Assembly (NCBI RefSeq): GCF_001697225.1 | Contig: NZ_CP014671.1 | Coordinates: 1,860,001 to 1,924,000, forward strand | Direction: 5' to 3' | Length of the DNA: 64,000 nt | From: Immundisolibacter cernigliae | GTDB taxonomy: Bacteria > Pseudomonadota > Gammaproteobacteria > Immundisolibacterales > Immundisolibacteraceae | The notes under the pieces: generated by a model | The model's input: the letters and a program-made list of their open reading frames with translations, nothing else | Database searches by the model: none | What the model was told of the DNA's origin: nothing | In this document: piece after piece, positions 35,036 to 50,596 of the stretch | How positions within the stretch are numbered: the stretch's first letter is position 1 | Layout of the letters: every line of letters starts with the position of its first letter | Translations under genes and position numbers: made by a program

Positions 35036-36130
35036 ATGAATGCACCCTCGCCCAACACCGCCCCCGACCGCTTCGCGCTCGACCACATGCGCCGCCTGGT
35101 GGCCGACCTGTTCGCCTACCGCCCGGCGCTGTACTGGATCGATTTCATCCTGAGCGCCGGCCTGGGCTACGCGCTGGCGCTGGCGTATCTGACCGGCAGC
35201 GGGCCGGTGTGGGCACAGGCGCTGGCCTTCGTCGGCGCCGGCGTGCTGCTGTTCCGGGCCGGCACCTTCATGCACGAGATCGTGCACATGAACGGCCAAG
35301 TCATGCCCGGTTTCCGGCTGTTCTGGAATCTGTTCTACGGCATCCCGCTGCTGATGCCGTCGCTGATGTACCGGAACCACCTGGATCACCACAACGTCAA
35401 CCGCTTCGGCACGCCGCAGGACGGCGAGTACCTGCCGCTGGGCAGCGCGCCCACCGGCGAGACCATCAAATACCTGATCCAGGTGCCGATCCTGCCGCTG
35501 CTGGCGGTGCTGCGCTTCCTGGTGGTGACGCCGCTGTCCTACCTGCACCCGGGCCTGCGGCGCTGGGTGATGCGCCGCGCCTCGTCCTACGGCAGCAACC
35601 CCTACTACCAGCGCCAGGTTCCGGCCGACGAGCCGCTCGCGCTGTGGGCGCTGCAGGAGTGGGCCTGCTTTGCCTGGCTGGCGTTCCTGACCGGCCTGTT
35701 CGTGACCGGCGTGCTGCCGTGGGCGCTGCTGGGCAAGGTCTATCTGTTGATGACCTTTGCCATCGGCCTGAACTGGCTGCGCAATCTGGCCGCTCACAAG
35801 TACGTCAACACCGGCGAGCGCATGAGCCTGCAGGGTCAGCTCGAGGACTCGATCAACATCACCGGTCAGACCTGGCTGACGGCTCTGCTGTTCCCGATCG
35901 GCCTGCGCTACCACGCCCTGCACCACCTGTTCCCGGCCATGCCGTATCACTCGATGGGCGAGGCGCACCGGCGGCTGATGGCGCAGTTGCCGCCCGATGC
36001 CGCCTACCGGGTGACCGACTATCCCAACTTCTTCGCCGCCGTTTCGCAGCTGTGGCGCGGCGCCCGGCAAAGCGCCGGCAACGGCGCGCTGATGCAGGAC
36101 TGGCGCCGGCTCGGCGCACCCGGTGGCTGA
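35036..36130 (+). CDS. Fatty acid desaturase/hydroxylase family membrane protein
   Basis: The 364-residue integral membrane protein has the three histidine boxes of the di-iron desaturase family: H80-EIV-H84, H115-LD-HH119 and HALHH near residue 293. Hydrophobic segments lie at about 33-52, 60-78, 155-180 and 220-265. It probably introduces a double bond or hydroxyl into an acyl chain or long-chain base, using oxygen. It is the first gene of a short operon with the lipid kinase and Tam41-like genes (stop/start overlap of 8 bases with the next). In the setting of the sphingolipid locus it may act on a sphingoid base or ceramide; this is inference. Confidence 0.85.
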   Translation: MNAPSPNTAPDRFALDHMRRLVADLFAYRPALYWIDFILSAGLGYALALAYLTGSGPVWAQALAFVGAGVLLFRAGTFMHEIVHMNGQVMPGFRLFWNLFYGIPLLMPSLMYRNHLDHHNVNRFGTPQDGEYLPLGSAPTGETIKYLIQVPILPLLAVLRFLVVTPLSYLHPGLRRWVMRRASSYGSNPYYQRQVPADEPLALWALQEWACFAWLAFLTGLFVTGVLPWALLGKVYLLMTFAIGLNWLRNLAAHKYVNTGERMSLQGQLEDSINITGQTWLTALLFPIGLRYHALHHLFPAMPYHSMGEAHRRLMAQLPPDAAYRVTDYPNFFAAVSQLWRGARQSAGNGALMQDWRRLGAPGG

Positions 36131-37076
36131 ACCGGCAAGCGTCGGCGTCATCAGCAATCCGGCCAGCCGGCACAACGTCCGCGGCGGCCTGGCGGCGATC
36201 AAGGCCGTGCTCGCCGGCCATCCGGCGATCCCGCACCGGCTGGCCCAAACGCCGCAGCAGATCGAGACCGCGCTCGGCGAACTGGCCGCGGCCGGCGCGA
36301 GCTGCGTGGTGCTCAGCGGCGGCGACGGCACCGTGCAGGCGGCACTGACCACCCTGTCCCTGCGCTCGCCGTTCGCATCCCCACCGACGCTGCTGGTGCT
36401 GGCCGGCGGCACCACCAACATGAGCGCCTACGACCTTGGCAGCCACGGTCGCCCGGCGCGGCTGCTGCGGCGTCTGCTGAGGGGCCGGCTCGCCGTCACG
36501 CGCCGGCGCGTGCTGTGCGTGCGCGAGGCCGACGGCACCACCCGCTGCGGATTTTTCTTCACCGCCGGCGGCCTGCCGGCGGCGGTACGGGATTGCCGCA
36601 CGTTTCGCGAGACCAGCACCCTGCCGGGCATGCGCAGCGCGCTGGGCACGGCGGCATGGATCAGCGGACGACTGCTGCGCCTGCTCGCCGGCCGCGAACC
36701 CTTCGAAGCCTTGCCGGTCAGCTGGCAGCCGGACGCCGAACCGGCCCGCCGCTGCGAGGCGCTGCTGCTGCTGGCCAGCACGCACGAGCGCCTCGCCCTG
36801 GGACTGACGCCGTGGTGGGGCCCTGGCAGCGGCCGGATCAGGACCACACTGATCAGCCGGCCGGCGCGACGCCTGGCGCGGGCGCTGCCGGGACTGCTGC
36901 GCGGGCGCCCGCCGGCCTTTGCGAATGCCGCCACCGGCTACGAAAGCCGGGCGGTCAGCACCTTGCACCTGACTCCTACCGGCGGCTACGCCCTCGATGG
37001 CGAGGATTACTTCCCGCCCGCCGGCAGTGAGCTGGCGATCAGCACCGGCCGCGAATTCGAGTTTCTTCAGCCATGA
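36123..37076 (+). CDS. Diacylglycerol/sphingoid-base/ceramide kinase family protein
   Basis: The 317-residue protein has the DAG-kinase catalytic domain: a nucleotide loop GGDGTVQAAL (residues 66-75) and LVLAGGTTNMSA, corresponding to the GGDGT and GTxN motifs. The C-terminal half carries the beta-sandwich domain of the DgkB/LCB5 fold. The start is GTG at 36123, overlapping the desaturase stop. Enzymes of this fold phosphorylate diacylglycerol, sphingosine or ceramide. Placed between a desaturase and a cytidylyltransferase-like gene, in a locus with serine palmitoyltransferase, it could be a ceramide kinase. The substrate is not shown by sequence. Confidence 0.82.
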   Translation: MAEPASVGVISNPASRHNVRGGLAAIKAVLAGHPAIPHRLAQTPQQIETALGELAAAGASCVVLSGGDGTVQAALTTLSLRSPFASPPTLLVLAGGTTNMSAYDLGSHGRPARLLRRLLRGRLAVTRRRVLCVREADGTTRCGFFFTAGGLPAAVRDCRTFRETSTLPGMRSALGTAAWISGRLLRLLAGREPFEALPVSWQPDAEPARRCEALLLLASTHERLALGLTPWWGPGSGRIRTTLISRPARRLARALPGLLRGRPPAFANAATGYESRAVSTLHLTPTGGYALDGEDYFPPAGSELAISTGREFEFLQP

Positions 37077-38011
37077 GCAGCGCCGACCGCGACGCCCTGC
37101 GTGAGGACATCGACCGCCTGATCGACGCGCCTGCCCCGCCGGGTGCCCTGGCACTGGCGCAGGCGCTGCGCGCGCGCCACGGCGACACCGTGGCGGCGGT
37201 GCTGTTCTACGGCTCGAACTTTCGCCGCGCCGACGACCGCGAGGGCCTGCTGGACCTGTACGTACTGGTCGACGATTGCCGCGCGGCGCTCGCCAGCCGC
37301 CTGTCCGCGCTGGCTTGCCGGCTGCTGCCGCCCAACGTCTATTACCTGGAACTGCTGGTCGATGGCCGCACCGTGCGCTGCAAGTACGCTCTGCTGGAGC
37401 TGCCCGTCTTTGGCCGCTACATGACCGCCCGGCAAAGCTATTTCTGGGGCCGCTTCGGCCAGGCCAGCGGCCTGCTGTACGCACGTGATGCAGCAGCCCG
37501 CCAACAGGTGACGCGGGCACTCGCACAGGCCGTACTGACCCTGCTCGGACGTGCCTTGCCGCTGCTTCCTAATGAAGTCGACGAAGCCACCTGGTGGCAG
37601 ACGGCACTGGCCGCCTGCTACGGCGCGGAGCTGCGCCCGGAGCGGCCGGGGGCGGTCGAGGGACTAGTGCGCGATCTTGCGCCCTGGCGTGAACGACTCA
37701 CGCCGCCGGCCGCCGCCTGCCTGGCCGGCGTCAGGCCGCAGGCCGGGCACTACCGGGTAGAGCTTGCGCCCGGCCGGCGCCGCCTCGGGCGCCTGGGCTG
37801 GGTGGTACGCCGCCTGCTCGGCAAGACGCTGAACGTGGCGCGCCTGATCAAGGCCGCGTTCACCTTCGCCGGCGGTGTCGACTACCTGCTGTGGAAGGTC
37901 GAGCGCCACTCCGGCGTGCGCATCGAGCCAACGCCCTTCCTGCGCCGCCATCCGCTGCTGGGCATCTGGGGCGTGGCCTGGCGGCTGTGGCGACGGGGTG
38001 GGTTCAGATAG
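37073..38011 (+). CDS. Tam41-like nucleotidyltransferase (possible CDP-lipid synthase)
   Basis: The 312-residue protein shows patterns of the Tam41/Mmp37 cytidylyltransferase family: YGSNF and LDLYVLVDD in the N-terminal nucleotidyltransferase core (residues about 45-68), then VYYLELLVDGRTVRCKYALL and a C-terminal helical part. Tam41 makes CDP-diacylglycerol from phosphatidate and CTP in mitochondria. The ATG overlaps the stop of the lipid kinase by 4 bases, so the product of the kinase may be its substrate. A convergent CDP-alcohol phosphotransferase gene lies opposite. The assignment is by motif likeness and context; a profile search is needed to settle it. Confidence 0.55.
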   Translation: MSSADRDALREDIDRLIDAPAPPGALALAQALRARHGDTVAAVLFYGSNFRRADDREGLLDLYVLVDDCRAALASRLSALACRLLPPNVYYLELLVDGRTVRCKYALLELPVFGRYMTARQSYFWGRFGQASGLLYARDAAARQQVTRALAQAVLTLLGRALPLLPNEVDEATWWQTALAACYGAELRPERPGAVEGLVRDLAPWRERLTPPAAACLAGVRPQAGHYRVELAPGRRRLGRLGWVVRRLLGKTLNVARLIKAAFTFAGGVDYLLWKVERHSGVRIEPTPFLRRHPLLGIWGVAWRLWRRGGFR

Positions 38012-38055
38012 CGCCGGGCGACCTGCGCGCGGGCGCAGTCATCCGGGCCGGAAGA

Positions 38056-38110
38056 TTCGCGGCGAGGGCGCCGCTCACAGTGGGCGTGGGAGGCCCGCCC
38101 TCGGGCCGAA
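38056..38110. repeat. REP-like element, copy C (units in reverse order)
   Basis: Here the unit TTCGCGGCGAGGGCGCCGCTCAC comes first and GTGGGAGGCCCGCCCTCGGG second, with only 7 bases between, the reverse of copies A and B. It lies between the convergent Tam41-like and CDP-alcohol phosphotransferase genes, where a bidirectional terminator role is plausible. Confidence 0.78.
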
Positions 38111-38146
38111 GATCGTCGACGCAAGCCCCGGCCGAATACCGACACC

Positions 38147-39304
38147 TCAGCTGGCAAACCAGCGCACGGCGCGGCTGTCGGTGGGGATTTCACGCCCGAC
38201 CTGCTCCAGCCACGACACCAGCGGGCCGCGTTGCCGCGCAACGACCCCCTGAGCGACCCGCACCCACAGCAGCAGCGTCGACAGCACCGTCCAGCCGGCC
38301 ACCAGCCACAGGCCAAGTGCAGGCTGGCCGACCAGGGCACACAGCGTCAGCAGCAGCAGGTTCGGATTGCGCCGGGCGGTGATCAGGCGGTTGTAGGAAT
38401 CAAACGGCCGCCATACGAACAGCGAGAACCTGGCGCAGAGCCCCTGGAAGCCGCCCTCGGCCAGGCGTCCGCCGATGTAAGCGGCCACGATCACCCAGAT
38501 CAGCGTCTGCGTCGGCACGCTGCCCTCGGGCAGGCCCAGCGCCCAGGCGGCATACCAGAACGGCGGATGGATCAGGTCGATGCCGTGGTCCAGGATGTCG
38601 CCAAAGCGGGTGGACTTGACCGTCACCCGCGCCAGCTTGCCGTCGACCGTGTCCAGAAAGGTCATCAGCCAGGCACAGACCAGGCCCGGCAGCCACCAGC
38701 CGCCCCAGAAGGCAAAGCCGGCGGCAACGGTCAGCGCCAGGCCGGTCAGCGTCACCTGGTTGGGCGTGATGCCGTGGCGGGCGCACCAGCCGGTCGCCGC
38801 CCGCGCCGGCGCCGGCCACCACCACTTGGTGATGAAATCCGTGACGCCCTTGTAGGCGGTACCGAACAGGCGCCGCTCCAGATCAGTCTGCCCGGCGGGC
38901 GTAACGTGCAGCACGTAGGGCGTAGAAACCTTGCGCAGCTTCTTCTGATAGCCCGTGGTCAACGTGGTGGGGAGTTCGACCACGTAGCCGTCGGCCGGCT
39001 GCTGTTCGGCCAGCACGGCCTGCGCCCGCGTGGCACCGCCCACCGGCGCGTGCAGCGCCACCAGCGGGCCATCGGCGCTCACGCGCAGCGCCACGCCGGG
39101 CGCATCGACCAGCGCCGCCACCACCCGCTCGTCGAACAGATAATCGGCGCGCAGGCACAGCACGCTGCGCTGCGGCGGCGGCGCGGCGGTGTCATCCAGC
39201 ACCTCGATGCCCAGCTTGCCCAACACACGCCGCAGGCGCTCGCGCCCGCCAAGGCCCCACAGACGGACCGGCGCTTCGCCGGCAAGATACGCGACCGGTT
39301 TCAC
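38147..39304 (-). CDS. CDP-alcohol phosphatidyltransferase with an N-terminal extension
   Basis: The 385-residue protein has a soluble N-terminal part (about 1-160) and a membrane phosphotransferase domain. The catalytic motif is complete: D218, D221-G, A225-R226, G235, D239 and D243, the DxxDGxxAR-x8-GxxxDxxxD signature. The TPNQVTLTGL segment before it is also family-typical. The N-terminal part resembles a worn nucleotidyltransferase domain, as in bifunctional inositol-phosphate cytidylyltransferase/DIPP synthases. The enzyme should swap CMP of a CDP-activated lipid or alcohol for another alcohol. It faces the Tam41-like gene. Confidence 0.85.
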   Translation of the reverse strand: MKPVAYLAGEAPVRLWGLGGRERLRRVLGKLGIEVLDDTAAPPPQRSVLCLRADYLFDERVVAALVDAPGVALRVSADGPLVALHAPVGGATRAQAVLAEQQPADGYVVELPTTLTTGYQKKLRKVSTPYVLHVTPAGQTDLERRLFGTAYKGVTDFITKWWWPAPARAATGWCARHGITPNQVTLTGLALTVAAGFAFWGGWWLPGLVCAWLMTFLDTVDGKLARVTVKSTRFGDILDHGIDLIHPPFWYAAWALGLPEGSVPTQTLIWVIVAAYIGGRLAEGGFQGLCARFSLFVWRPFDSYNRLITARRNPNLLLLTLCALVGQPALGLWLVAGWTVLSTLLLWVRVAQGVVARQRGPLVSWLEQVGREIPTDSRAVRWFAS

Positions 39305-39402: not shown

Positions 39403-40341
39403 GTGTCCAGTATCGAACCGAACGAGCCAAACCCCGCCGACGCCCCACCGAGCGAATGGGCGCTGGCGCATTTGTCGGACCTGCACCTGACCGATCCGCT
39501 GGCAGACGCCGACGCGCCGCTGGCGATCAAGCAGCGCCTGGGCCGTGCCTCCTGGCGTCGCCGCCGCAGCCTCATTCATCAGCCGGCGGTGCTGGCCGCC
39601 CTGGCCGCCGACCTGCACGCCCAGGCGCCGCGCCAGATCGCCATCAGCGGCGATCTGGTGCAGATCGGGCTGCGGCGCGAGTTCGAGCAGGCCGCCGACT
39701 GGCTGGCCGGTTTTGCGCCGCCCGCGCGCCTGCTGCTGGTGCCGGGCAACCACGAGGCCTACGTGGCCAACACCTGGCAGGCCGGCCGCGAGTGCTGGCG
39801 CCCCTATCTGGCGGGTGCGGCGGATGGCGCACCGTGGCTGCTGCGCCGCGACCGGCTGCTGCTGATCGGGCTGTCGAGCGCCGTGCCGAGCTGGACTGGC
39901 CTGGCCACCGGTACGCTCGGCAGGACGCAGATCGCCGCCCTGGACGCGGCGCTGCAAGCGGGCGCCGACGAAGGGCTGTTTCGAGTCGTCGTCATCCACC
40001 ATCCGCCGGCGACCAATGTGGTCAGCTGGCGCAAGCGCCTGACCGATCATCGCCGCTTTGCACAGGTCATCGCGCGCCGCGGCGCCGGCGTGATCCTGCA
40101 CGGCCACGCCCACCGCGCCACGCTGTCACAGCTGGCCGGCCCCGCCGGCCCGGTGGCGGTGGTCGGCGCGCCGTCGGCTTCGGCACTCGACCGACGCCCC
40201 GACCGCATGGCCGGCTACAACCTGCTGCGCATCCGGCCATCGGCGCACGGCTGGCAGCTGCGCCTGAGCCGGCGTGTTTTCCGGCCGCAAACGCAGGACT
40301 TCGACTGGCAGGAACACCACGACCTGGCCAGCCACGGCTGA
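39403..40341 (+). CDS. Metallophosphoesterase
   Basis: The 312-residue calcineurin-like phosphoesterase has the full metal-binding set: LSDLHL, SGDLV, PGNHEA, VIHHPP and HGHAH. No signal peptide is seen; the protein starts with GTG at 39403 after a charged/proline-rich lead. Family members hydrolyse phosphomonoesters, phosphodiesters or UDP-linked lipid precursors (as LpxH does). In this lipid locus it may remove a phosphate from a lipid intermediate, an inference. It is divergent from the CDP-alcohol phosphotransferase and convergent with lptG. Confidence 0.85.
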   Translation: MSSIEPNEPNPADAPPSEWALAHLSDLHLTDPLADADAPLAIKQRLGRASWRRRRSLIHQPAVLAALAADLHAQAPRQIAISGDLVQIGLRREFEQAADWLAGFAPPARLLLVPGNHEAYVANTWQAGRECWRPYLAGAADGAPWLLRRDRLLLIGLSSAVPSWTGLATGTLGRTQIAALDAALQAGADEGLFRVVVIHHPPATNVVSWRKRLTDHRRFAQVIARRGAGVILHGHAHRATLSQLAGPAGPVAVVGAPSASALDRRPDRMAGYNLLRIRPSAHGWQLRLSRRVFRPQTQDFDWQEHHDLASHG

Positions 40342-40450: not shown

Positions 40451-41512
40451 CTATCGCAAGCGGCGCAGCAGACGACCTGCAAACAGCAGGATCAGCGTCG
40501 GCAGGGCCAGCGCCGTCAGCGGCGCCGGCAGGTGCAGCAGCAGGCCCAGGTAACCGAGCGTCTGGCTGACGAAATACAGCCCGATGCCGGCCACCGTGCC
40601 GGCCAGCACACGGCGACTGAGCGTGCTCGACCGGTTGCTGCCCAGCACCAGCGGGACGGCCACCAGCATCATGGCCAGCGTCACCAGCGGTTGTGCCAGC
40701 TGCTGCCACAGGCGCAGCTCTTCCTGCGGCACCTGCTCGTTACGGGCGCGCAGATCGCGCACGTAGAAATACAGGTCGATCGGCGACAGGGCTTGCGGCG
40801 GTATCACCAGCACGCCCAGCTGCTGGGCATTGAGGAACGACGACCATTCCAGCTGCGCCAGCTGCTGCGCGCGCGCCGGCGGCGGCTCGAACTGCTTGAC
40901 CACCACGTCCTGGAGCCGCCACACGCGGTCCTGCTCCAGACTCGCGCGCTGGGCGTGCAGATAGCGCTGCAAACGCCCGGCGGCATCGAAGTCATACACC
41001 GTCACATCGGACGGGGTGCGCCCACGCAGCATGCGCCCGACGTTCAGGAAACTGCGCCCGTCGCGCGACCAGAAGCCGCCGCGAAAATCCACCGACACAT
41101 CCTCGGCCAGCGCCGCGGCGCGCATGCGCTCGGCGCGCATCTCCAGCGGCGGCGCCACGAACTGGGCCATCAGCAGCATCAGCATCAGCAACGTCAGGCC
41201 GGGCGCCAGCACCATGCCGATCAGCCGCCGCAGCGGCAGGCCGGCGGCGCGCATGGCGAGAATCTCGTTGCCGTCCGCGAGCAGGCCCAGCGGCACCAGC
41301 GTGCCCAGCAGGGCGATCACCGGCGTGGCATCCAGCAGGCGGCGCGGCAACATCATCAGCACGTACAGGAAGGCGTCGACCAGCGTGTAGGCGCCCTCGA
41401 CGTCGTCGAGCTGCTGGATCAGCTCGATGAAGCTGAACAGCGCCACGAATACCAGCGCCACCAGCAGGTAGCCCTGCGCCATGGCGCGGGCGATGTAACG
41501 GGCAAGAATCAT
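40451..41512 (-). CDS. lptG: Lipopolysaccharide export permease LptG
   Basis: The 353-residue inner-membrane protein starts MILARYIARAMAQGYLL. It has a pair of N-terminal and a group of C-terminal membrane helices flanking a periplasmic beta-jellyroll region (about 125-250), the LptF/LptG (YjgP/YjgQ) layout. With LptF and the ATPase LptB it extracts lipopolysaccharide from the inner membrane. The ATG at 41512 overlaps the lptF TGA (ATGA). The order lptF-lptG and sequence such as GLPLRRLIGMVLAPG point to the canonical export pair, though its place within a sphingolipid locus raises a second possible cargo. Confidence 0.9.
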   Translation of the reverse strand: MILARYIARAMAQGYLLVALVFVALFSFIELIQQLDDVEGAYTLVDAFLYVLMMLPRRLLDATPVIALLGTLVPLGLLADGNEILAMRAAGLPLRRLIGMVLAPGLTLLMLMLLMAQFVAPPLEMRAERMRAAALAEDVSVDFRGGFWSRDGRSFLNVGRMLRGRTPSDVTVYDFDAAGRLQRYLHAQRASLEQDRVWRLQDVVVKQFEPPPARAQQLAQLEWSSFLNAQQLGVLVIPPQALSPIDLYFYVRDLRARNEQVPQEELRLWQQLAQPLVTLAMMLVAVPLVLGSNRSSTLSRRVLAGTVAGIGLYFVSQTLGYLGLLLHLPAPLTALALPTLILLFAGRLLRRLR

Positions 41513-42585
41513 CGGTGGCGGCGACGCCGCCACTGCGGCAGCACGATCAGCGCGGCCAGCACCACGCAGCCGAGCAGGGGAACGAGCAACACCCCGGGCC
41601 AGGGAGCCAGCTCGCCGTTCTCCACCGCATCCATCACCACCGCCAGCAGGTTGTAGTACACGATGCAGCCGAGCAGGCCGACCGTCAGCTTGCTGGAGCG
41701 GCTGCGCCGCGGCGGCATGCGGCTGATTGGCACGCCCAGCAGGCCCAGCAGGACGGTAGAGAACGGTGCCGCGATGCGCCACTGCAGTTCGGCCGTGTCC
41801 TCCGGATCCGCTGACGCCGCCAGCTCGTCGTTCGCGGTGGCCTTGCGGCGCTTGCGCACGATGACCTGCTCCTCGTCCAGGCGCAGCGCCAGCGTACGGT
41901 AGCTGATGATCATGTCGCTGCCCAGGCTGTCGCCCGTGCCCGGATCGAGCTGGTAGTAGTGGCCGTCGAGGAATTCCACGACCTGCCGCCCGTCGGGGTC
42001 GGTGAGCTGGCGTGCCCGCTGGGCGAACACCACCCCGTCGGCCTGGCCGCCGCTGTCGGCGTGGGTGAACACCTGCAGCCGCTCGTCACCCTCGGCCGCC
42101 TCGCTGAACATCACCAGACCGCCGGTGAAATCGGCATAGAACCGGCCCGGCGGCAGGCGCGTCAGGTCGAAGCGGCGCTCGGCGCTGGCCTCCAGCCGGT
42201 AGACGTTCTGATACAGCTGCGGGCGCACTACCAGCGATGCGACTGCCACCACCGCCGCCACCGGCAGCGCCAGCCACAGCACGGCCTGGAACAGCCAGCG
42301 TTCGCCGATGCCGCAGGCTGCCAGGGCGGTGGTCTCCTGATCGCGCTGCAGGCGCCCCAGGCCGAGCGCCACCGACAGCATCAGCGCCATCGGCACGATG
42401 GCATCCAGGCTGATGAACAGCTTCAGCCCGATCAACACCGCCGCCAGGCTGCCGGGCAGTGCGCCGCTGGCCGCCTCGCCCAGAAAGCGCGCCGAGCTGT
42501 AACCGGTAAAAACCAGCAGCAGGCTGCCGCACACCACCGCAAACGGGCTCGCCAGCTCGCGCAGCAGGTAGCGTCTGAGGATCAT
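41509..42585 (-). CDS. lptF: Lipopolysaccharide export permease LptF
   Basis: The 358-residue partner of LptG starts MILRRYLLRELASPFAVV at 42585. It has the same layout: membrane helices near the N-terminus (about 15-35 and 50-120), a periplasmic region (about 130-260) and C-terminal helices (about 285-350). The motif SRMPPRRSRSSKL precedes the last helices. An extended -10 element (TGC-TAGACT) lies about 50 bases upstream. The longer open frame reported to begin at 42777 is not supported. The 275-base region upstream also serves the divergent nucleotidyltransferase gene. Confidence 0.92.
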   Translation of the reverse strand: MILRRYLLRELASPFAVVCGSLLLVFTGYSSARFLGEAASGALPGSLAAVLIGLKLFISLDAIVPMALMLSVALGLGRLQRDQETTALAACGIGERWLFQAVLWLALPVAAVVAVASLVVRPQLYQNVYRLEASAERRFDLTRLPPGRFYADFTGGLVMFSEAAEGDERLQVFTHADSGGQADGVVFAQRARQLTDPDGRQVVEFLDGHYYQLDPGTGDSLGSDMIISYRTLALRLDEEQVIVRKRRKATANDELAASADPEDTAELQWRIAAPFSTVLLGLLGVPISRMPPRRSRSSKLTVGLLGCIVYYNLLAVVMDAVENGELAPWPGVLLVPLLGCVVLAALIVLPQWRRRRHR

Positions 42586-42860: not shown

Positions 42861-43583
42861 ATGCAGGCCGTCATCCTGAGCGCCGGTCAAGGCCGGCGCT
42901 TGCTGCCCCTCACCGCCGATCGCCCCAAGTGCCTCATCGACCTGCACGGCAAGACGCTGCTGCAATGGCAACTGGACGCGCTGCTGGCCGCCGGCGTCGG
43001 CCCGATCACCGTGGTCACCGGTTACGCCAGCGAGGCAGTCGAGGCGGTGATCGCCAATCACTACGCCGGACAGGCGGTGCAGGTGCAGTTCAACCCGTTC
43101 TTCCAGGTGGCGGACAACCTTGGCAGTTGCTGGATTGCCCGTGCCGCCTTCGAGGGCGAGCTGCTGCTGCTCAACGGCGACACGGTGTTCGAACCGGCGA
43201 TCGTGCAGCGCCTGCTGGCGGCGCCGGCGGCGCCGATCCGCCTGACCATCGACCGCAAGGCCCAGTACGACGACGATGACATGAAGGTCATCGTCGACGG
43301 CGAGCGGCTGCTGCGCATCGGCAAGCACCTGCCGGTGGATGCGGTGGATGCCGAATCGATCGGCATGCTGCGCTTCGGCGCCGATGGGGCACGGCATTTT
43401 CAGGCGGCCGTTGAACGCGCGCTGCGCGAGCCGGACGGCCTGCGCTGGTGGTATCTGTCGGTGATCGACCGGCTGGCCGACGAGGGCCTGGTCGAGACCT
43501 GCTCGATCGAAGGCCTGCGCTGGGCCGAGGTGGATTTCCCGCGGGATCTTGACGCCGCGCGGGCGGTGGTGGCCGAAGGCTGA
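42861..43583 (+). CDS. Nucleotidyltransferase of the sugar/alcohol-phosphate type
   Basis: The 240-residue protein begins MQAVILSAGQGRRLLPL, the G-x-G-x-R/K-x-x-P signature of sugar-1-phosphate nucleotidyltransferases, followed by DRPKCLIDL with the conserved lysine and NGDTVF with a metal-binding aspartate near residue 112. By layout it is nearest to phosphocholine/inositol-phosphate cytidylyltransferases. It likely makes an NDP-activated head group or sugar for the lipid locus. The ATG at 42861 is chosen because the family signature starts there; the open frame extends further upstream without support. Its precise substrate is unknown. Confidence 0.8.
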   Translation: MQAVILSAGQGRRLLPLTADRPKCLIDLHGKTLLQWQLDALLAAGVGPITVVTGYASEAVEAVIANHYAGQAVQVQFNPFFQVADNLGSCWIARAAFEGELLLLNGDTVFEPAIVQRLLAAPAAPIRLTIDRKAQYDDDDMKVIVDGERLLRIGKHLPVDAVDAESIGMLRFGADGARHFQAAVERALREPDGLRWWYLSVIDRLADEGLVETCSIEGLRWAEVDFPRDLDAARAVVAEG

Positions 43584-43699: not shown

Positions 43700-44491
43700 T
43701 TAGCCGGCGCCGGCCAACAGTCGCTCGACCAGCTCGAAATCGGCCACAGAATCGACATCCACCGCCGCTCGCGGATCGTCCAGCAGCACGGCGCCGAGCT
43801 GCGCCCCGACCCGCCGCGACAGGCGGCCAAGGCCCGCCTCCAGGGTCAACCAGCCGCACAGGTACGCCAGCAGCGTGCCCGGCCCGAGCGCCGCCGCCAG
43901 CCGGTGCGGTTTCTTGCGCTGCTGCTCGATACGGCGCCAGAACTCGGGCGCGCGCCGGCCGGCCGGACTCAGAAACGCGAACAGATTGCAGCCGCAGTAG
44001 GCGCCGTCTCGGAAGCGAAGCGCCGTGCGACGCGACTGCGGAAACGCCGCCTGCACCGCCGCATGGCGGGCCAGGCCCACCACGGCATCCTTGCCGGTCG
44101 CCTCGGCGGCGCCGCAGAAGGCATCGACCCAGGCCGCCTGCAACAAGGCGTGGTCCGCCGTCGTGAGCAGCACCGGCGTGCCCGCCGGCACGCTGGCCAG
44201 ACCCGCCAGCGCGCTCTGGCTGGGCGAGGGCGCCGGCGCCAGCCAGGCCAGCTCGCCGCCGGCAATCCGCCTCGCCAGCGGCGGGCAAGCGGCGATCTGC
44301 TCCTGGGTCGGGCCAACCAGCGTCACCCGGCTCACCGCCGTGCTGGCCGCCAGCGCGTCCAGCACGCGCAGCAGCATCGGCTGGCCGGCCACCGGCACCA
44401 GCGCCTTGCAGGCTGCGCCCGCGTGGCGGGCCACCGGATCGTCCGGGCCGCGGTCGCCGGCCAGCACCACGGCGTGAAACAGAGTGCTCAA
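43700..44491 (-). CDS. MobA-like nucleotidyltransferase domain protein
   Basis: The 263-residue protein has a nucleotidyltransferase core: FHAVVLAGDRGPDDPVA near the N-terminus, CKALVPVAGQPML (the conserved lysine region) and TTADHALL with acidic residue. The start is most likely a TTG at 44491 that overlaps the upstream stop (TTGA). The typical GG.. loop (LAGGxGxR) is degenerate here (LAGDRG). Conserved domain order fits MobA/GlmU-type nucleotide transferases, and activity may be altered. It follows the ceramide-synthase-like gene with a 4-base overlap, so it probably serves the same lipid pathway. Confidence 0.72.
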   Translation of the reverse strand: MSTLFHAVVLAGDRGPDDPVARHAGAACKALVPVAGQPMLLRVLDALAASTAVSRVTLVGPTQEQIAACPPLARRIAGGELAWLAPAPSPSQSALAGLASVPAGTPVLLTTADHALLQAAWVDAFCGAAEATGKDAVVGLARHAAVQAAFPQSRRTALRFRDGAYCGCNLFAFLSPAGRRAPEFWRRIEQQRKKPHRLAAALGPGTLLAYLCGWLTLEAGLGRLSRRVGAQLGAVLLDDPRAAVDVDSVADFELVERLLAGAG

Positions 44492-45624
44492 AGCGCCTTG
44501 CCGTAGATGCGGTAGCGCTTGTAGCAGCGGCTGCCGAGCGACTCGATGATGCTGCGCATGCCGCGGTTGTCCTCCAGAATCCACGACATCTCGGCCTGCG
44601 TGACACCGCGCCGCAGACCGGTCTGGCGAACGGCATCGACCACCAGCATCGCCAACGCGGCGCCCAGCCGGGTGCGCTGCAGGCGCTGGCGCACGCCCAG
44701 CAGCGCCACCCGCACGGCCTTCGGGTGGCGTACCTTGAGCCGCCACAGCAGCCTGGCCCAGCCAAACGGCAGCAAGCGACCATGCAGGTCCGCAATCGCC
44801 TCGTTGAGGTTGGGCAGCACGGCGATCATCGCCACCGGCTCACCGGCCACCTCGGCAATCTGCACAAAGCCCGGATCGACCAGCCAGCGCACCAGCTGGC
44901 CGAGCTGCCTGAACTCGGCCGCGGTGAACGGCACGAAGCCCCAGTTGCCGGCCCAGGCATCGTTGAAGATGTCGCGCAGGATGGCGATGTCGCGGTCCAG
45001 GTGCTTGAGGTCCAGCGGCCGCAGCGTGACCTGGTCACGCTCTCGCTCGAGCACGCGCTGGGCTGCCGGCGAGAACCGAAAATCCGCATCGACGATGTAG
45101 GCCAGCAGATCCTTGGCCTTGGCATAGCCCTGCTCCTGGATACGCGGCCCGTAGTACGGCAGGGCATGGCCCATCATCACCATCGGCGGGGTGTCGAAGC
45201 CGTCCACCAGCACCCCGCATTCCTCGTTGATGGACAGGTTGAAAGGTCCGCGGATCTCGGTCATGCCCTGGCCGCGCAGCCAGTCTTCGGCAGCGCCCAG
45301 CAGGGCCGCGAATACCTGCGGGTCGTCTTCGGCCTCCAGCAGCCCGAAATACCCGACCCGCTCGCCGTGCGTCTGCTCGTACAGCGTATCCACCTGCGCG
45401 CTGATGCGCCCGACCACCTGGTCACCGCGCTTCGCCAGCCAGGCCTGCCAGCGGGCGTGCTCGAACAGCGGATTGCGGGCCGACAGCAGTTCATGTCGCT
45501 CCAGCAGCAGCGGCGGCACCCAATGGGGATCGTTCCGGTACAGGCGCTGTGGCAACGCCCAGAAAGCACGCTTGGCCGACCGTCCCATCAAGGGCGTGAC
45601 GGTCAACGACGCCGGGCCGTTCAT
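44488..45624 (-). CDS. bcerS: GNAT-fold N-acyltransferase, bacterial ceramide synthase-like
   Basis: The 378-residue protein resembles the GNAT-superfamily proteins identified as bacterial ceramide synthase (bCerS), which join an acyl-CoA to a sphingoid base and were often misnamed dATP pyrophosphohydrolase. Characteristic segments are PQRLYRNDPHWVPPLLLE near residue 25, RISAQVD, VGYFGLLEAEDD and the C-terminal acceptor region ending YKRYRIYGKAL. It starts at ATG 45624 and is divergent from the HIT/acyl-AMP-ligase operon across a 284-base AT-richer region. Context with serine palmitoyltransferase and ACP supports the role; direct similarity should be checked. Confidence 0.78.
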   Translation of the reverse strand: MNGPASLTVTPLMGRSAKRAFWALPQRLYRNDPHWVPPLLLERHELLSARNPLFEHARWQAWLAKRGDQVVGRISAQVDTLYEQTHGERVGYFGLLEAEDDPQVFAALLGAAEDWLRGQGMTEIRGPFNLSINEECGVLVDGFDTPPMVMMGHALPYYGPRIQEQGYAKAKDLLAYIVDADFRFSPAAQRVLERERDQVTLRPLDLKHLDRDIAILRDIFNDAWAGNWGFVPFTAAEFRQLGQLVRWLVDPGFVQIAEVAGEPVAMIAVLPNLNEAIADLHGRLLPFGWARLLWRLKVRHPKAVRVALLGVRQRLQRTRLGAALAMLVVDAVRQTGLRRGVTQAEMSWILEDNRGMRSIIESLGSRCYKRYRIYGKAL

Positions 45625-45713
45625 GCGCACAGCCGGCGCGAGGCAAACAGACGAAAGCGGATCATCGACCACCTGGAGGGCAAGGAAAACGCGGCACAGC
45701 CGGCCGCGCGATT

Positions 45714-45751
45714 TTTCGCACACATGTTAGATACGTTATATTCCGCGGCAA
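45714..45751. promoter_or_regulatory. Overlapping divergent promoters in the ceramide-synthase/HIT gap
   Basis: On the minus strand TTGCCG (45746-45751), a 16-base spacer and TAACAT (45724-45729) form a recognisable promoter for the ceramide-synthase-like gene. On the plus strand TATATT (45737-45742), with TTTCGC 17 bases before it, faces the HIT gene. The plus-strand leader of about 160 bases ends with a small hairpin GGCGGT/ACCGCC (45876-45893), 15 bases before the HIT ATG, that could affect translation. The rest of 45625-45908 shows no gene. Confidence 0.5.
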
Positions 45752-45908: not shown

Positions 45909-46337
45909 ATGAACGCCACGGCGCGAAAATTCGGCGACCCGACCACACGCATCGCCACCTGCGGTGCGTGGACCGTGTTGCTGCGACCACGCCAGCCTAC
46001 GCTGGGCGCGCTGGTGCTGGTGTGTGAAGAACCGGTACGCGCGTTCGGTGATGTGAGTGCGGCGGCCTACGCCGATCTTGCCCGAACCACCCGCCGCGTC
46101 GAAGCCATGCTTGGCGCCGCATTTGCTTACGACAAGATCAATTACCTGATGCTCATGATGGTGGACCCCGACGTGCATTTTCATGTCCTGCCGCGCTACG
46201 CGCAGATCCGGCACTTCGCCGGACATGCGTTTTCCGATCTGGCCTGGCCCAACGCCCCCGATCTGGGTTTCGATCATGCCATCGACGCCGCGACGCAGGC
46301 CGCCCTGATCGAGCGCCTGAAAGAGGCGTGGCAATGA
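45909..46337 (+). CDS. HIT-family protein with altered histidine triad
   Basis: The 142-residue protein has the HIT fold: YDKINYLMLMMVDPDVHFHVLPRY near residues 74-97. The classical H-x-H-x-H triad reads D88-V-H90-F-H92, so the first histidine is an aspartate. The nucleophilic central histidine is kept, so phosphoramidase or nucleotide hydrolase activity remains possible. Its TGA overlaps the start of the acyl-AMP ligase gene by 4 bases. HIT enzymes often hydrolyse adenylates, so it might remove misactivated acyl-AMP or act on another nucleotide in this pathway; this is inference. Confidence 0.72.
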   Translation: MNATARKFGDPTTRIATCGAWTVLLRPRQPTLGALVLVCEEPVRAFGDVSAAAYADLARTTRRVEAMLGAAFAYDKINYLMLMMVDPDVHFHVLPRYAQIRHFAGHAFSDLAWPNAPDLGFDHAIDAATQAALIERLKEAWQ

Positions 46338-48133
46338 GCGGTGCGGCCCAGGCCAACCCGGACTTCGGCTACGGCGCGGCCACGGCCCGGCCCACGCCGA
46401 CGCACAACACCCTGCCGGTGCGTTTTGCCGACTTCGATACGCTCACTGACGCACTCGATTACGCGGCCGCGGGCACCACCGGCAGCAATTTCTACAATGC
46501 GCGCGGCGATCTGGCGCTGGCGCTGAGCTATGCCCAGCTGCGCCAAGACGCGCTGGATCTAGCGCAGCGCTTCGCGGCTCTGGGCCTGCCCCGGCAGGCA
46601 CGCGTGGCGCTGGTGGCGGAAACCGACCCGGATTTCGTGCGGCTGTTTTTCGCCTGCCAGTACGCCGGGCTGGTGCCGGTGCCCCTGCCCGCGGCGGTGC
46701 ACCTGGGCGGGCGGGAGGCCTTTGTGCGCCAGCTGCGCACCATGCTGGACGGTTGCCAGGCCAGTGTGGCGATCGCGCCGCCGGACTTCGGCCCCATGCT
46801 GCACGCCGCCGCCGTCGATGTGCCGCTCGCCTTCTGTGGCACGCCCGATGAGTTCCGCGCGCTGCCGCTGGCGGACAACCCACCGGCATCGTCGCAGGCT
46901 GACGAGCTGGCCTATTTGCAATACACCTCCGGAAGCACCCGTTTCCCGCGCGGGGTGATGATCACCCACCGCACCGTGATGCAGAACCTGCAGGGCATCG
47001 TGCGCCATGGCCTGGCCATCAGCGACGCTGATCGGTTCATGTCCTGGCTGCCCTTCTATCACGACATGGGGCTGGTCGGACTGGTGTTCTCGCCGCTGGC
47101 CGCGCAGCGTTCCGTGGACTACCTGGGCACGCGCGATTTCGCCATGCGGCCGCGCCAGTGGCTGGCACTGATGTCGCGCAATCGCGCCACCATCGCCTTC
47201 AGCCCGCCGTTTGGCTATGCGCTGGTCGGGCGCCGCTTGCGACCGACCGATGTCGCCCAGTACGACCTGTCGGCCTGGCGCATCGCCGGTGTCGGCGCCG
47301 AGACCATCCGCGCCGAGACGCTGGAACAGTTCGCAGCGGTACTGCACGACAGCGGCTTTCGCGCCGAGGCCTTCCTGCCCTGCTACGGCATGGCCGAGTG
47401 CTCGCTGGCGGTCAGTTTCGCGCCGCTTGGCCTGGGCATCGACACGGACACGGTGGATGCACAGGTGCTTGGCCATCAGCGGGTGGCCCAGATGGCCGAC
47501 GCGCATACCACCAGCGTCAACCGCTTCGTCAACTGCGGCGCGGTATTGCCGGGACATTCCCTTGAAATCCGCGACGAGGCCGGCCGCCGACTGCCGCAGC
47601 GGCGTTGCGGAACCATTTTCGTGCGCGGACCCAGCGTCATGTCCGGCTACTTCGGCGATGCCGCCGAAACCGCCCGCGTCCTGTCACCGGACGGCTGGCT
47701 CAATACCGGCGATGTCGGTTATCTGGCCGACGGCCGCCTGTTCATCACCGGCCGCGAGAAGGATCTGTTCATCATCAACGGGCGCAACATCTGGCCGCAG
47801 GATCTCGAATTCCTGGCCGAACAGCAGCCGGAACTGCGCCCGGAAGATGCCTCGGCGTTCGCCGTGCCCGACGCCGACGGCGACGACCTTGCGGTGCTGG
47901 TGGTGCAATGCCGCGAGCACGACCCGCTGCGTCGCATCGACCTGGTCATGCGCCTGCAGGGCCTGATCAAGGCCGAGCTTGGCATTCCCTGTTTCATCGA
48001 ACTGGTGGCCCCGCACACCCTGCCGCGCACCTCCTCGGGCAAGCTGTCGCGCTCCGGCGCCCGCCGCGACTTCCTGGAGCGCAACGGCAATCAGGCACCG
48101 GCGCCCAGTCGCCTCGCCAAGAGCATTGACTGA
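46334..48133 (+). CDS. Fatty acyl-AMP ligase/acyl-ACP synthetase of the sphingolipid cluster
   Basis: The 599-residue adenylating enzyme activates a fatty acid with ATP and passes it to a carrier protein or CoA. It has the AMP-binding P-loop YTSGSTRFPRGVMITH (near residue 197), the YGMAE motif, and TGDVGYLADGRLFITGREKD at the hinge, followed by a short C-terminal domain with GKLSRSG. The start is ATG 46334, with AGAGG 8 bases upstream; a GTG 6 bases earlier is less likely. The order HIT - ligase - reductase - ACP - serine palmitoyltransferase on one strand strongly suggests that it loads the ACP encoded at 49125 with the acyl chain used for sphingoid-base synthesis. Confidence 0.88.
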   Translation: MSGAAQANPDFGYGAATARPTPTHNTLPVRFADFDTLTDALDYAAAGTTGSNFYNARGDLALALSYAQLRQDALDLAQRFAALGLPRQARVALVAETDPDFVRLFFACQYAGLVPVPLPAAVHLGGREAFVRQLRTMLDGCQASVAIAPPDFGPMLHAAAVDVPLAFCGTPDEFRALPLADNPPASSQADELAYLQYTSGSTRFPRGVMITHRTVMQNLQGIVRHGLAISDADRFMSWLPFYHDMGLVGLVFSPLAAQRSVDYLGTRDFAMRPRQWLALMSRNRATIAFSPPFGYALVGRRLRPTDVAQYDLSAWRIAGVGAETIRAETLEQFAAVLHDSGFRAEAFLPCYGMAECSLAVSFAPLGLGIDTDTVDAQVLGHQRVAQMADAHTTSVNRFVNCGAVLPGHSLEIRDEAGRRLPQRRCGTIFVRGPSVMSGYFGDAAETARVLSPDGWLNTGDVGYLADGRLFITGREKDLFIINGRNIWPQDLEFLAEQQPELRPEDASAFAVPDADGDDLAVLVVQCREHDPLRRIDLVMRLQGLIKAELGIPCFIELVAPHTLPRTSSGKLSRSGARRDFLERNGNQAPAPSRLAKSID

Positions 48134-49052
48134 CGCCGGCAGCCGCACGGTCGCCATCACCGGCGCCAGCGGTTTTGTCGGCGCCGCCCTGGCCCGCCAT
48201 CTGGCCAGCCAGGGCTGGCGCTTGCGGCTGCTGGTGCGGCCGGGCTCGCAAAGTCGCTTGCCCCGGATCGACGTCGCCCATGTCGTCACCGGATCGCTCT
48301 GCGACGCGAACGCCCTGCGGCAGTTGCTGGACGGCGCCCAGGCACTTGTGCACTGCGCCGGGGCGGTCCGCGGCCTGACGCGCGCCGACTTCGACCGCGT
48401 CAACGTCGACGGCGTACAGGCGCTGCTGGACGCCACCGGCCCGGCGCAGCGGGTGGTGCACATCTCGTCGCTGGCGGCGCGTCATCCCGGCCTGTCGCAC
48501 TACGCCGCCAGCAAGCTGGCCGGCGAGCGGCGGGTGACCGACCAACTGCCGCCACAGCGGTGGGTCGTGCTGCGCCCGCCGGCGATCTACGGCCCGGGCG
48601 ACCGGGAACTGCGTCCGCTGCTGGACCGGATGATGCGCGGCCTGGCGCTGCTGCCGGGCCCACCGGACGCACGATTCTCTCTGCTGCACGTCCACGATCT
48701 GGCCCGCGCCGTCGGCTGCCTGTTGTCGGGCGACGCCGGCTGGGGCCAGACCCACGAGCCGGACGACGGCCACCGGCCAGGCTACGGCTGGCAGGATCTG
48801 CTGGACGCCGTCGCCCGGCTGCGCGGCGCGCCGGTGCGAGCCGTGCGCGTACCCGGTCCGCTGCTGTCGGCGCTGGGCGCCTGCAACGAACTGGCGGCCC
48901 GGCTCGCTGGCCGCGCGCCGATGCTCAGTCGCGGCAAGGCACGCGAGCTGCGCTGGCCGGACTGGCTCGCCGGCGGCAACGCCAGCCTGCTCGGCTGCGG
49001 CTGGCGGCCGGAAATCACACTCGATCAGGGGCTGCGGGACACGCTTGGCTGA
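48126..49052 (+). CDS. cerR: NAD-dependent epimerase/dehydratase-type reductase, CerR-like
   Basis: The 308-residue short-chain-dehydrogenase (extended) enzyme has the NAD(P) motif TGASGFVG, an aspartate/asparagine at the end of the second strand, and the catalytic YAASKLAGER tyrosine-lysine pair, with HISSLAARH before it. In Caulobacter-type sphingolipid clusters a protein of this class (CerR) reduces the 3-keto group after condensation. The start is most likely TTG at 48126, overlapping the ligase stop; no ATG fits the operon. A promoter-like TATACT lies in the 72-base gap before the ACP gene. Confidence 0.8.
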   Translation: MTDAGSRTVAITGASGFVGAALARHLASQGWRLRLLVRPGSQSRLPRIDVAHVVTGSLCDANALRQLLDGAQALVHCAGAVRGLTRADFDRVNVDGVQALLDATGPAQRVVHISSLAARHPGLSHYAASKLAGERRVTDQLPPQRWVVLRPPAIYGPGDRELRPLLDRMMRGLALLPGPPDARFSLLHVHDLARAVGCLLSGDAGWGQTHEPDDGHRPGYGWQDLLDAVARLRGAPVRAVRVPGPLLSALGACNELAARLAGRAPMLSRGKARELRWPDWLAGGNASLLGCGWRPEITLDQGLRDTLG

Positions 49053-49062
49053 GCCGGGCCGC

Positions 49063-49068: not shown

Positions 49069-49124
49069 CCCGCCGCCAGCCGCGCCAGTTGCGCGCAGGG
49101 CAGCAGGCGAGCGGGAGGAACCAC

Positions 49125-49367
49125 ATGGCAGTCAGCGCACAGCGCATCCTCGAAACCCTGCAGGATCGCCTGAACGCTCTTACCGGCGGCAAGGCGGTCA
49201 GCGGCGACACCGATCTGGTCGGCGACCTGGGACTCGATTCCCTGCAGGTCATGGAATTACTGATGGAAATGGAAGACGCATTCGACATCTCGATCCCGGT
49301 CAACGTGATGGCCGACGTGCGCACCGTCGGCGAGCTTGCCGCCGCCGTGCAAGCCCTGCTCGCCTGA
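49125..49367 (+). CDS. Dedicated acyl carrier protein of the sphingolipid cluster
   Basis: The 80-residue protein has the acyl carrier fold with the phosphopantetheine site in LGLDSLQVMEL (S39). GGGAGG-like purines (GGGAGGAA) stand about 5 bases before ATG 49125. Its acidic composition and length are typical. Placed between the acyl-AMP ligase/reductase and serine palmitoyltransferase, it probably carries the acyl group used by the latter, in place of CoA. Confidence 0.92.
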   Translation: MAVSAQRILETLQDRLNALTGGKAVSGDTDLVGDLGLDSLQVMELLMEMEDAFDISIPVNVMADVRTVGELAAAVQALLA

Positions 49368-49381
49368 TCCGGCGGCCCGAC

Positions 49382-50596
49382 ATGGCTCTGTTCGACAAAC
49401 TCGCGAGCGCTGCCGCGGTTCGCCGCGACGTGATCAGCTCCGGCGGCCTGGTGCCGTTCGGCGTCACCGTGGAGCGCATCCTGTCGCCCACCGAGGGCAT
49501 GGTCGCCGGCCGTCGGGTGATCCTGGGCGGCACCAACAACTACCTTGGGCTGACCTTCGACCCCGAGTGCATCGAGGCCGGTGCCGCCGCGCTGCGCAGC
49601 GAGGGCACCGGCACCACCGGTTCGCGCATGGCCAACGGCAGCTACGCCGGCCACCTGGCGCTGGAACACGAACTGGCAGAGTTCTACGGCTGGCCCCAGG
49701 CGATCGTGTTCTCGACCGGCTACCTGGCCAACCTGGGCATGATCGGCGCGCTGGCCGCGCCGGGCGACGTGCTGGTCATCGACGGCGACTGCCACGCCAG
49801 CATCTACGACGGCTGCAAGCTGTCCGGGGCGGAAGTCATCCGCTTCCGGCACAACAATGCCGCCGATCTTGACCGCCGTCTGGCCCGCCTGGGCGAGCGC
49901 GCCCAAAATGCCTTGGTCATCGTCGAGGGTATTTACAGCATGCTGGGTGACCAGGCGCCACTGGCCGATATTGCCGCGGCCACACACCGCCACGGCGCCA
50001 TGCTGATGGTGGACGAGGCGCACTCGCTGGGCGTGCTGGGTGCCAACGGCCGGGGCCTGTGCGAAGCCGCCGGCGTCATGGACGGCGTCGACTTCGTGGT
50101 CGGCACCTTCAGCAAGAGCCTGGGCGGGGTCGGCGGTTTCTGCGTCAGCCCGCACGCCGAGCTTGGCCTGGTGCGCTACACCAGCCGGCCGTACATCTTC
50201 ACCGCCTCGCCCTCGCCGGCCACCATCGCCTCCACCCGCACCGCGCTGGCTGCGCTGCGCAGCCGCCCGCAGCTGCGCCAGCGGCTGTGGCACAACGTGT
50301 CGCGCCTGCACGCGGGCCTGACCGCGATGGGTCTGCCGCCGGCGGCCGAGCCGAGCCCGGTGCTGGCGGTGCTGCGGGACAGCCGCGACCAGGCCCTGGC
50401 CGACTGGCAGCAGTTGCTGGATGCCGGTGTGTACGTGAACCTCATGGTGCCGCCAGCCACGCCGGGCGGCATCAGCCTGCTGCGCTGCAGCATCAGCGCC
50501 GCCCACACCGACGCGCAGATCGACCAAATTCTCGCCGCCTTCCGCGCCCTGCCGGGCGCCGGTCACGCTGTCGCGGGGCAGGCTGCTCTGGCATGA
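49382..50596 (+). CDS. spt: Serine palmitoyltransferase (sphingolipid committing enzyme)
   Basis: The 404-residue PLP enzyme belongs to the alpha-oxoamine synthases. It starts MALFDKLAS, as bacterial serine palmitoyltransferases do. It has GTNNYLGLTFDPE near residue 50, H138 (DCHASIYDG) stacking on PLP, D211-E-A-H214, and the Schiff-base lysine K245 in GTFSKSLGG. The enzyme condenses L-serine with an acyl thioester to 3-ketosphinganine in the cytoplasm as a homodimer. Sequence blocks match the Sphingomonas/Caulobacter type rather than KBL or BioF. Its stop overlaps the start of the next gene (ATGA), coupling synthesis to glycosylation. Confidence 0.93.
   Translation: MALFDKLASAAAVRRDVISSGGLVPFGVTVERILSPTEGMVAGRRVILGGTNNYLGLTFDPECIEAGAAALRSEGTGTTGSRMANGSYAGHLALEHELAEFYGWPQAIVFSTGYLANLGMIGALAAPGDVLVIDGDCHASIYDGCKLSGAEVIRFRHNNAADLDRRLARLGERAQNALVIVEGIYSMLGDQAPLADIAAATHRHGAMLMVDEAHSLGVLGANGRGLCEAAGVMDGVDFVVGTFSKSLGGVGGFCVSPHAELGLVRYTSRPYIFTASPSPATIASTRTALAALRSRPQLRQRLWHNVSRLHAGLTAMGLPPAAEPSPVLAVLRDSRDQALADWQQLLDAGVYVNLMVPPATPGGISLLRCSISAAHTDAQIDQILAAFRALPGAGHAVAGQAALA

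What the first reader, a model, noticed from the sequence alone, without database searches (positions are those of the whole stretch)
36123..39304. Possible CDP-ceramide (or CDP-lipid) head-group route
A lipid kinase, a Tam41-like cytidylyltransferase and a complete CDP-alcohol phosphotransferase sit next to each other. Together they would phosphorylate a lipid, activate it as CDP-lipid and exchange CMP for an alcohol. Such a route is known for glycerolipids. Applied to ceramide it would be new to me, and the setting beside serine palmitoyltransferase makes it attractive.
Basis: inference. Interest (0 to 1): 0.82.

Follow-up and report, generated by a model that had tools for sequence, protein, structure and literature searches.

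The report
Ceramide phosphoglycerate gene cluster, Tam41-type step

Summary
The three genes are real and adjacent: a DAGK-type lipid kinase (36123-37076), a Tam41-fold protein (37073-38011) and a CDP-alcohol phosphotransferase with a complete motif (38147-39304, opposite strand). They lie in a complete ceramide phosphoglycerate cluster like the one studied in Caulobacter: CpgB, CpgC, CpgA, CpgD, CC_1153, LptF2/G2, CerS, AasR, CerR, AcpR and Spt. Making an NDP-activated ceramide with this enzyme was already suggested in print in 2024, so the core idea is not new. The proposed three-step chain is not supported as one unit. In 52 genomes with the Tam41-like gene, the phosphotransferase occurs in exactly the 28 that also hold CpgD, the CDP-glycerate synthase; the kinase, the Tam41-like gene and the CC_1153-type nucleotidyltransferase are always together. 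Published Caulobacter genetics agree: CC_1159 is needed only for the second phosphoglycerate. Most likely: CpgB makes ceramide-1-phosphate, CpgC probably makes CDP-ceramide (inferred), an unidentified transferase makes CPG, and CpgA with CpgD extends CPG to CPG2. New lead: CC_1153 is CpgC's obligate partner.

The parts
36123..37076 (+). CpgB-type ceramide (lipid) kinase, 317 aa, DAGK catalytic domain with GGDG
   Evidence: Pfam DAGK_cat E 2.5e-11; family present in 52/52 genomes with the Tam41-like gene and, as a partial weak match, in 1 of 16 ceramide-synthase genomes without it
37073..38011 (+). CpgC-type Tam41-fold cytidylyltransferase, 312 aa; motif YGS x12 D(61), K104, R127; own C-terminal part 266-312
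38147..39304 (-). CpgA-type CDP-alcohol phosphotransferase, 385 aa, complete DxxDGxxARx8Gx3Dx3D motif
   Evidence: distribution
35036..36130 (+). fatty-acid desaturase/hydroxylase family protein, first gene of the same operon; candidate for hydroxylation of the ceramide acyl chain
   Evidence: PF00487 E 1.6e-27; relatives beside CpgB/CpgC in L066, L085, L091, L102; function inferred from CC_0202 (PMC11324152)
39403..40341 (+). calcineurin-like metallophosphoesterase conserved in the cluster (44 of 80 loci)
40451..41512 (-). LptF-type permease (LptF2), start set by homology
41509..42585 (-). LptG-type permease (LptG2), start set by homology
42861..43583 (+). CpgD-type CTP:phosphoglycerate cytidylyltransferase (COG1213-like), start set by alignment
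   Evidence: same 28 genomes as CpgA
43700..44488 (-). CC_1153-type nucleotidyltransferase, obligate companion of CpgC
   Evidence: model, fold; nearest solved relative TTHA0179
44488..45723 (-). bacterial ceramide synthase CerS (GNAT-like)
46328..48133 (+). fatty acyl-AMP/ACP ligase AasR
48144..49052 (+). ceramide reductase/epimerase family CerR (start set by homology)
49089..49367 (+). acyl carrier protein AcpR
49238..50596 (+). serine palmitoyltransferase (aminotransferase I/II family; the homologous part begins near 49238, start codon not settled)
   Evidence: BLAST match to family F10 in ORF 48560-50596; Pfam of the F10 representative

Best explanation
The region is a complete ceramide diphosphoglycerate (CPG/CPG2) synthesis and export cluster in an Immundisolibacter (Gammaproteobacteria). 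[quoted passage not shown] Step 2 (fold shown here, reaction inferred, about 50% likely): CpgC, a Tam41-fold enzyme, transfers CMP from CTP to ceramide-1-phosphate, giving CDP-ceramide. Step 3 (enzyme unknown): glycerate or phosphoglycerate displaces CMP to give ceramide phosphoglycerate (CPG); the obligate companion CC_1153-type protein is the first candidate to test, a housekeeping CDP-alcohol phosphotransferase the second. Step 4, optional (CDP-glycerate by CpgD shown in Caulobacter; transfer by CpgA inferred): CpgA moves a phosphoglycerate from CDP-glycerate to CPG, giving CPG2. So the CDP-alcohol phosphotransferase next door uses the soluble CDP-glycerate and is not the enzyme that consumes the lipid made by kinase and Tam41-like protein.
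For: Gene content and order match the published cluster CC_1168-CC_1152 and recur in 80 named loci of alpha-, gamma- and deltaproteobacteria and Nitrospirota. CpgC has a Tam41 fold: profile E 2e-8, Foldseek E 1.6e-9, VIA Z 18.7. Like Tam41, which keeps only one of the three usual acidic residues (PMC11646218), CpgC has a single invariant acid in that domain, D61; GS, K104, R127, Y183, R188 and E190 also align with Tam41. The genome has an ordinary CdsA, so CpgC is not the housekeeping CDP-DAG synthase. CpgA and CpgD: 28 of 52 genomes have both, 24 neither, none only one (Fisher p 2e-15), and the label switches at least 10 times on the best CpgC tree, 5 forced by well-supported branches. CpgC and CC_1153: the same 27 of 398 genomes, out of 43 with CerS. 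CpgB: 52 of 52. Caulobacter genetics and CpgD/CpgB biochemistry agree.
Against: No activity of any CpgC has been measured; papers of 2025-2026 still call its mechanism unidentified. A Tam41 fold does not fix the lipid substrate; CpgC could act on phosphatidate, since CpgB also phosphorylates DAG in vitro. In Caulobacter a CC_1153 mutant still makes CPG, and more of it, which speaks against CC_1153 as the CPG synthase there. Caulobacter sequences could not be fetched here, so orthology rests on gene content, order and domain types. Co-occurrence counts are not corrected for kinship: on supported branches only 5 independent switches remain.
Confidence: 0.72

Rival explanations
1. One reading: kinase, then Tam41-like CDP-ceramide synthase, then the neighbouring CDP-alcohol phosphotransferase exchanges CMP for an alcohol on CDP-ceramide.
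For: Adjacency; full CDP-alcohol phosphotransferase motif; Tam41 fold; many enzymes of this family use CDP-lipids.
Against: CpgA is absent from 24 of 52 genomes with kinase and Tam41-like gene and tracks CpgD exactly; Caulobacter lacking CC_1159 but expressing CC_1160 still makes CPG; convergent strand here.
Confidence: 0.07
2. CC_1153 is the missing CPG synthase: a nucleotide-diphospho-transferase-fold enzyme that uses CDP-ceramide from CpgC and joins it to D-glycerate (or 2-phosphoglycerate) with release of CMP.
For: Same 27 of 398 genomes as CpgC, absent from 16 CerS-positive genomes without CpgC; present also where CpgA and CpgD are absent; lacks the usual GxGxR loop but keeps metal-binding Asp positions; nearest solved relative is TTHA0179 of Thermus thermophilus HB8, E 7e-39, Z 26.2, a strain whose phospholipid carries phosphate on the 2-OH of D-glyceric acid (PMC3398001).
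Against: The Caulobacter CC_1153 mutant accumulates CPG and lacks CPG2. Fold neighbours are nucleotidyltransferases (IspD, GlmU). Some genomes have two copies, so redundancy is possible but untested.
Confidence: 0.17
3. CpgC does both activation and transfer: it forms a CDP-ceramide and completes the exchange with glycerate itself, using its own conserved C-terminal part.
For: Residues from about 243 on carry 6 of 23 invariant positions, and the Tam41 match ends near residue 265; no dedicated CDP-alcohol phosphotransferase is available in 12 genomes.
Against: No known Tam41 does this; the C-terminal part may only bind the membrane.
Confidence: 0.12
4. CpgC makes ordinary CDP-diacylglycerol and the cluster only feeds normal phospholipid.
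For: Tam41 makes CDP-DAG; CpgB phosphorylates DAG in vitro.
Against: The genome has CdsA; all 27 CpgC genomes of the phylum set are within the 43 with ceramide synthase CerS; deletion of CC_1161 abolishes CPG in Caulobacter; cpgB deletion leaves phosphatidate unchanged.
Confidence: 0.06

Closest known systems
Caulobacter crescentus CPG2 cluster CC_1168-CC_1152 (cpgA, cpgB, cpgC, cpgD, CC_1153, spt, cerS, cerR, aasR, acpR, lptC2/F2/G2)
   Same: Same set of functions and neighbourhoods: ceramide synthesis genes, kinase, CDP-DAG-synthase-like gene, CDP-alcohol phosphotransferase, two nucleotidyltransferases, phosphoesterase, LptF2/G2.
   Different: Here hydroxylase, kinase and CpgC form one operon and CpgA is convergent to it; the metallophosphoesterase is widely conserved, whereas CC_1158 was reported missing from several species. 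Direct sequence comparison with Caulobacter could not be made.
Tam41 CDP-diacylglycerol synthase (6ig2, 6ig4, 7ecd)
   Same: Fold over residues 19-265 (Z 18.7), GS...D motif with a single acidic residue, K, R, Y and E positions.
   Different: 13-18% identity, no Pfam Tam41 hit, own C-terminal segment, setting with ceramide kinase; substrate unknown.
CDP-alcohol phosphotransferases of the archaetidylinositol-phosphate/PIP synthase and DIPPS type (AF2299, 6wm5, 4mnd)
   Same: Complete catalytic motif; N-terminal soluble part before the membrane domain.
   Different: Below all NCBIfam cut-offs; co-occurs with a CDP-glycerate synthase.
TTHA0179 of Thermus thermophilus (2dpw)
   Same: Nearest solved relative of the CC_1153-type protein (Z 26.2, 32% identity).
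   Different: Function unknown; different lipid backbone (diacylglycerol) in Thermus.

Membership tests
CPG/CPG2 biosynthesis cluster | Five ceramide genes (spt, cerS, cerR, aasR, acpR) together | tested here: met
CPG/CPG2 biosynthesis cluster | Kinase CC_1160, CC_1161, CC_1159, CC_1153 and CC_1152 counterparts present | tested here: met
   domain types and conserved synteny; no Caulobacter sequence available for direct comparison
CPG/CPG2 biosynthesis cluster | Product CPG/CPG2 in the lipids | not testable with these tools
   needs lipid mass spectrometry
Tam41 fold | Overall fold beyond the nucleotidyltransferase core | tested here: met
   Z 18.7, 227 residues aligned to 7ecd; next fold Z 7.7; Foldseek top five all Tam41
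Tam41 fold | Nucleotidyltransferase motif with only one of three acidic residues | tested here: met
   G47 and D61 invariant, S48 nearly so, no other invariant acid in that domain; Tam41 feature from PMC11646218
Tam41 family (Pfam) | Match to the curated family model | tested here: not met
   no Pfam or NCBIfam hit for this protein nor a Tam41 hit for six family members; filed as a distant relative with the same fold, not as a member of the Pfam family
CDP-diacylglycerol/CDP-ceramide synthase | CTP-dependent cytidylyl transfer to a lipid phosphate | not testable with these tools
   needs enzyme assay
CDP-alcohol phosphotransferase | DxxDGxxARx8Gx3Dx3D motif and Pfam match | tested here: met
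   the motif read in the window sequence
Bacterial ceramide kinase CpgB | DAGK catalytic domain with GGDG, linked to ceramide genes | tested here: met
   substrate itself not tested

The most novel reading that the evidence does not exclude
The CC_1153/TTHA0179 family joins lipid phosphates to D-glycerate: in sphingolipid makers it takes CDP-ceramide made by the Tam41-fold CpgC to form ceramide phosphoglycerate, and in Thermus it takes part in forming the phosphatidylglycerate unit of the glyceroylalkylamine lipids. That would be the first CDP-ceramide pathway and a head-group transferase outside the CDP-alcohol phosphotransferase family.
Probability: 0.14. Interest if true: 0.82.

Novelty: new member of a known kind. 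Interest (0 to 1): 0.5.

Why it matters
How ceramide-1-phosphate becomes ceramide phosphoglycerate is an open step in the synthesis of the anionic sphingolipid that helps Caulobacter live without LPS. The Tam41 fold of CpgC gives that step a concrete chemistry, and the exact co-occurrence sets say which genes to assay together: CpgB, CpgC and CC_1153 for CPG, CpgA and CpgD for CPG2. No paper in the held library uses the term CDP-ceramide, so showing the molecule would be new.

Tried and rejected
A single-sequence search of the PDB with the CpgC protein found nothing; the profile of its relatives was needed. Two broad CpgC alignments could not be turned into patterns for the genome-contig scan; a four-member one worked. 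I looked for another CDP-alcohol phosphotransferase near CpgC in clusters without CpgA: 47 loci, some of them short, have no ORF with the motif. I considered CC_1153 as a mere ceramide gene: rejected, because 16 CerS-positive genomes lack it. I considered that absence of CpgA reflects incomplete genomes: several negatives are complete one-contig genomes (G183, G302, G355, G415). No TTHA0179 literature was found, and no Thermus genome could be reached by handle. Caulobacter sequences were not among the 80 loci returned. The promoter scan gave nothing, the terminator scan nothing convincing.
Full report
Observation. The three genes exist at the stated coordinates. The kinase carries a DAGK catalytic domain, the phosphotransferase a CDP-OH_P_transf domain with the complete motif. 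The middle protein has no Pfam or NCBIfam match. The desaturase/hydroxylase gene, kinase and middle gene overlap and form one probable operon; the phosphotransferase is convergent to it. The genome is 3.24 Mb in one contig, and an Immundisolibacter MAG is a near relative.

What cluster this is. The wider window holds bacterial ceramide synthase, acyl-AMP/ACP ligase, ceramide reductase, acyl carrier protein and serine palmitoyltransferase, plus LptF/LptG-type permeases, a metallophosphoesterase, a COG1213-like cytidylyltransferase and a MobA/IspD-like nucleotidyltransferase. This is the published ceramide phosphoglycerate (CPG/CPG2) set of Caulobacter, CC_1168 to CC_1152 (PMC11324152). I could not fetch Caulobacter sequences, so the naming CpgA-D rests on domain types, gene content and order. 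In Caulobacter, CpgB is a ceramide kinase (PMC10331486), CpgD makes CDP-glycerate (PMC12275187), and the mechanism of CpgC was still called unidentified in 2025-2026. The 2024 paper already suggested that CC_1161 (CpgC) might form an NDP-activated ceramide and that a further, unknown enzyme would condense it with glycerate.

Is the middle protein Tam41-like? Yes. A profile of six relatives hits mitochondrial Tam41 at E 2e-8. An AlphaFold2 model from 49 natural sequences has pLDDT 92 and pTM 0.90; Foldseek's first five hits are all Tam41, and VIA-align gives Z 18.7, rmsd 3.1, 227 residues to the Firmicutes Tam41 with CTP-Mg, against 7.7 for aminoglycoside nucleotidyltransferases. Tam41 is unusual in keeping one of three acidic residues of its fold (PMC11646218); CpgC likewise has one invariant acid there, D61. 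K104, R127, Y183, R188 and E190 align with Tam41. It fails the curated family models, so I file it as a distant relative with the same fold. An ordinary CdsA is elsewhere in the genome.

Do the three genes form one chain? I tested co-occurrence in whole genomes. In 52 distinct genomes with CpgC (53 searched; G367 and G450 are the same), CpgA is present in 28 and CpgD in exactly the same 28 (Fisher p 2e-15). Kinase and CC_1153-type protein are present in all. On a CpgC tree the CpgA/CpgD label needs 10 changes, 5 of them forced by well-supported branches, so the pair was gained or lost together several times. In an even sample of 398 genomes of the phylum, CerS is found in 43, CpgC in 27, CC_1153 in exactly those 27, CpgA in 10 of them. 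Of the 16 CerS genomes without CpgC, 15 lack the CpgB-type kinase and one has a partial weak match. The profile is nested: ceramide synthesis, then kinase + CpgC + CC_1153, then CpgA + CpgD. Twelve CpgC genomes without CpgA have just two CDP-alcohol phosphotransferase genes in all; that these are PgsA and PssA is inferred from scores and lengths.

Mechanism. Published genetics place CC_1160 and CC_1161 before CPG and CC_1159 after it. CDP-ceramide as the product of CpgC is the simplest chemistry that fits a Tam41 fold acting after a ceramide kinase; I put it at about one half. The enzyme that would then put glycerate on it is not known.

A new lead. The CC_1153-type protein has been placed in the CPG2 step because its mutant lacks CPG2 and accumulates CPG. 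Its distribution does not fit a CPG2-only role: it is always with CpgC, also where CpgA and CpgD are missing. Its model (pLDDT 95) is of the IspD/GlmU type, with Thermus TTHA0179 clearly nearest (Z 26.2; profile E 7e-39). Thermus thermophilus HB8 makes a phospholipid in which phosphate sits on the 2-OH of D-glyceric acid (PMC3398001), and CpgD prefers 2-phospho-D-glycerate. The family may thus be tied to lipid-phosphoglycerate linkages. This is inference from two lineages and conflicts with the Caulobacter mutant unless a second copy helps there; six sampled genomes do have two strong copies.

Verdict. Real genes, correct Tam41 call, wrong grouping of the third gene, and a pathway that is known in outline and already suspected of using an activated ceramide.

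Noticed in passing
window 43700-44488: CC_1153-type nucleotidyltransferase occurs in exactly the same genomes as CpgC and is closest to Thermus TTHA0179 of unknown function.
   Followed up: yes
window 35036-36130: FA desaturase/hydroxylase gene opens the kinase-CpgC operon; relatives sit beside CpgB/CpgC in L066, L085, L091 and L102. A candidate ceramide acyl hydroxylase like CC_0202.
   Followed up: partly
L096:2441-3649, L100:3138-4364, L103:2517-3806, L110:3166-4395, L119:3077-4390: A second, divergent CDP-alcohol phosphotransferase (motif DSVDGKxARLTF) lies near CerS and LptF in several alphaproteobacterial clusters that also have CpgA; possibly another head group.
   Followed up: partly
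window 39403-40341: Metallophosphoesterase conserved in 44 of 80 CpgC loci, with or without CpgA, although CC_1158 was reported as rare; could be a phosphatase of a phosphorylated CPG intermediate.
   Followed up: partly
L063, L069, L087, L109: Methylothermaceae-type loci have CpgC with LptF/G and phosphoesterase but no kinase found beside it.
   Followed up: no
window ~51784-52890: Mito_fiss_Elm1-type protein in the sphingolipid region; the same family often follows CpgC in other gammaproteobacteria (family F11).
   Followed up: no
window 45909-46337: Small conserved protein of the cluster (family F18 in 9 loci), not identified.
   Followed up: no
window 29473-34751: A block that looks like a type I restriction enzyme gene (30872-34033) with neighbours of lower third-position GC lies just upstream of the operon; possible insertion.
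   Followed up: no
L108, L115, L052: CpgC genes in MAGs labelled Acetothermia, Marinimicrobia and Rokubacteria; horizontal transfer or binning error not resolved.
   Followed up: no
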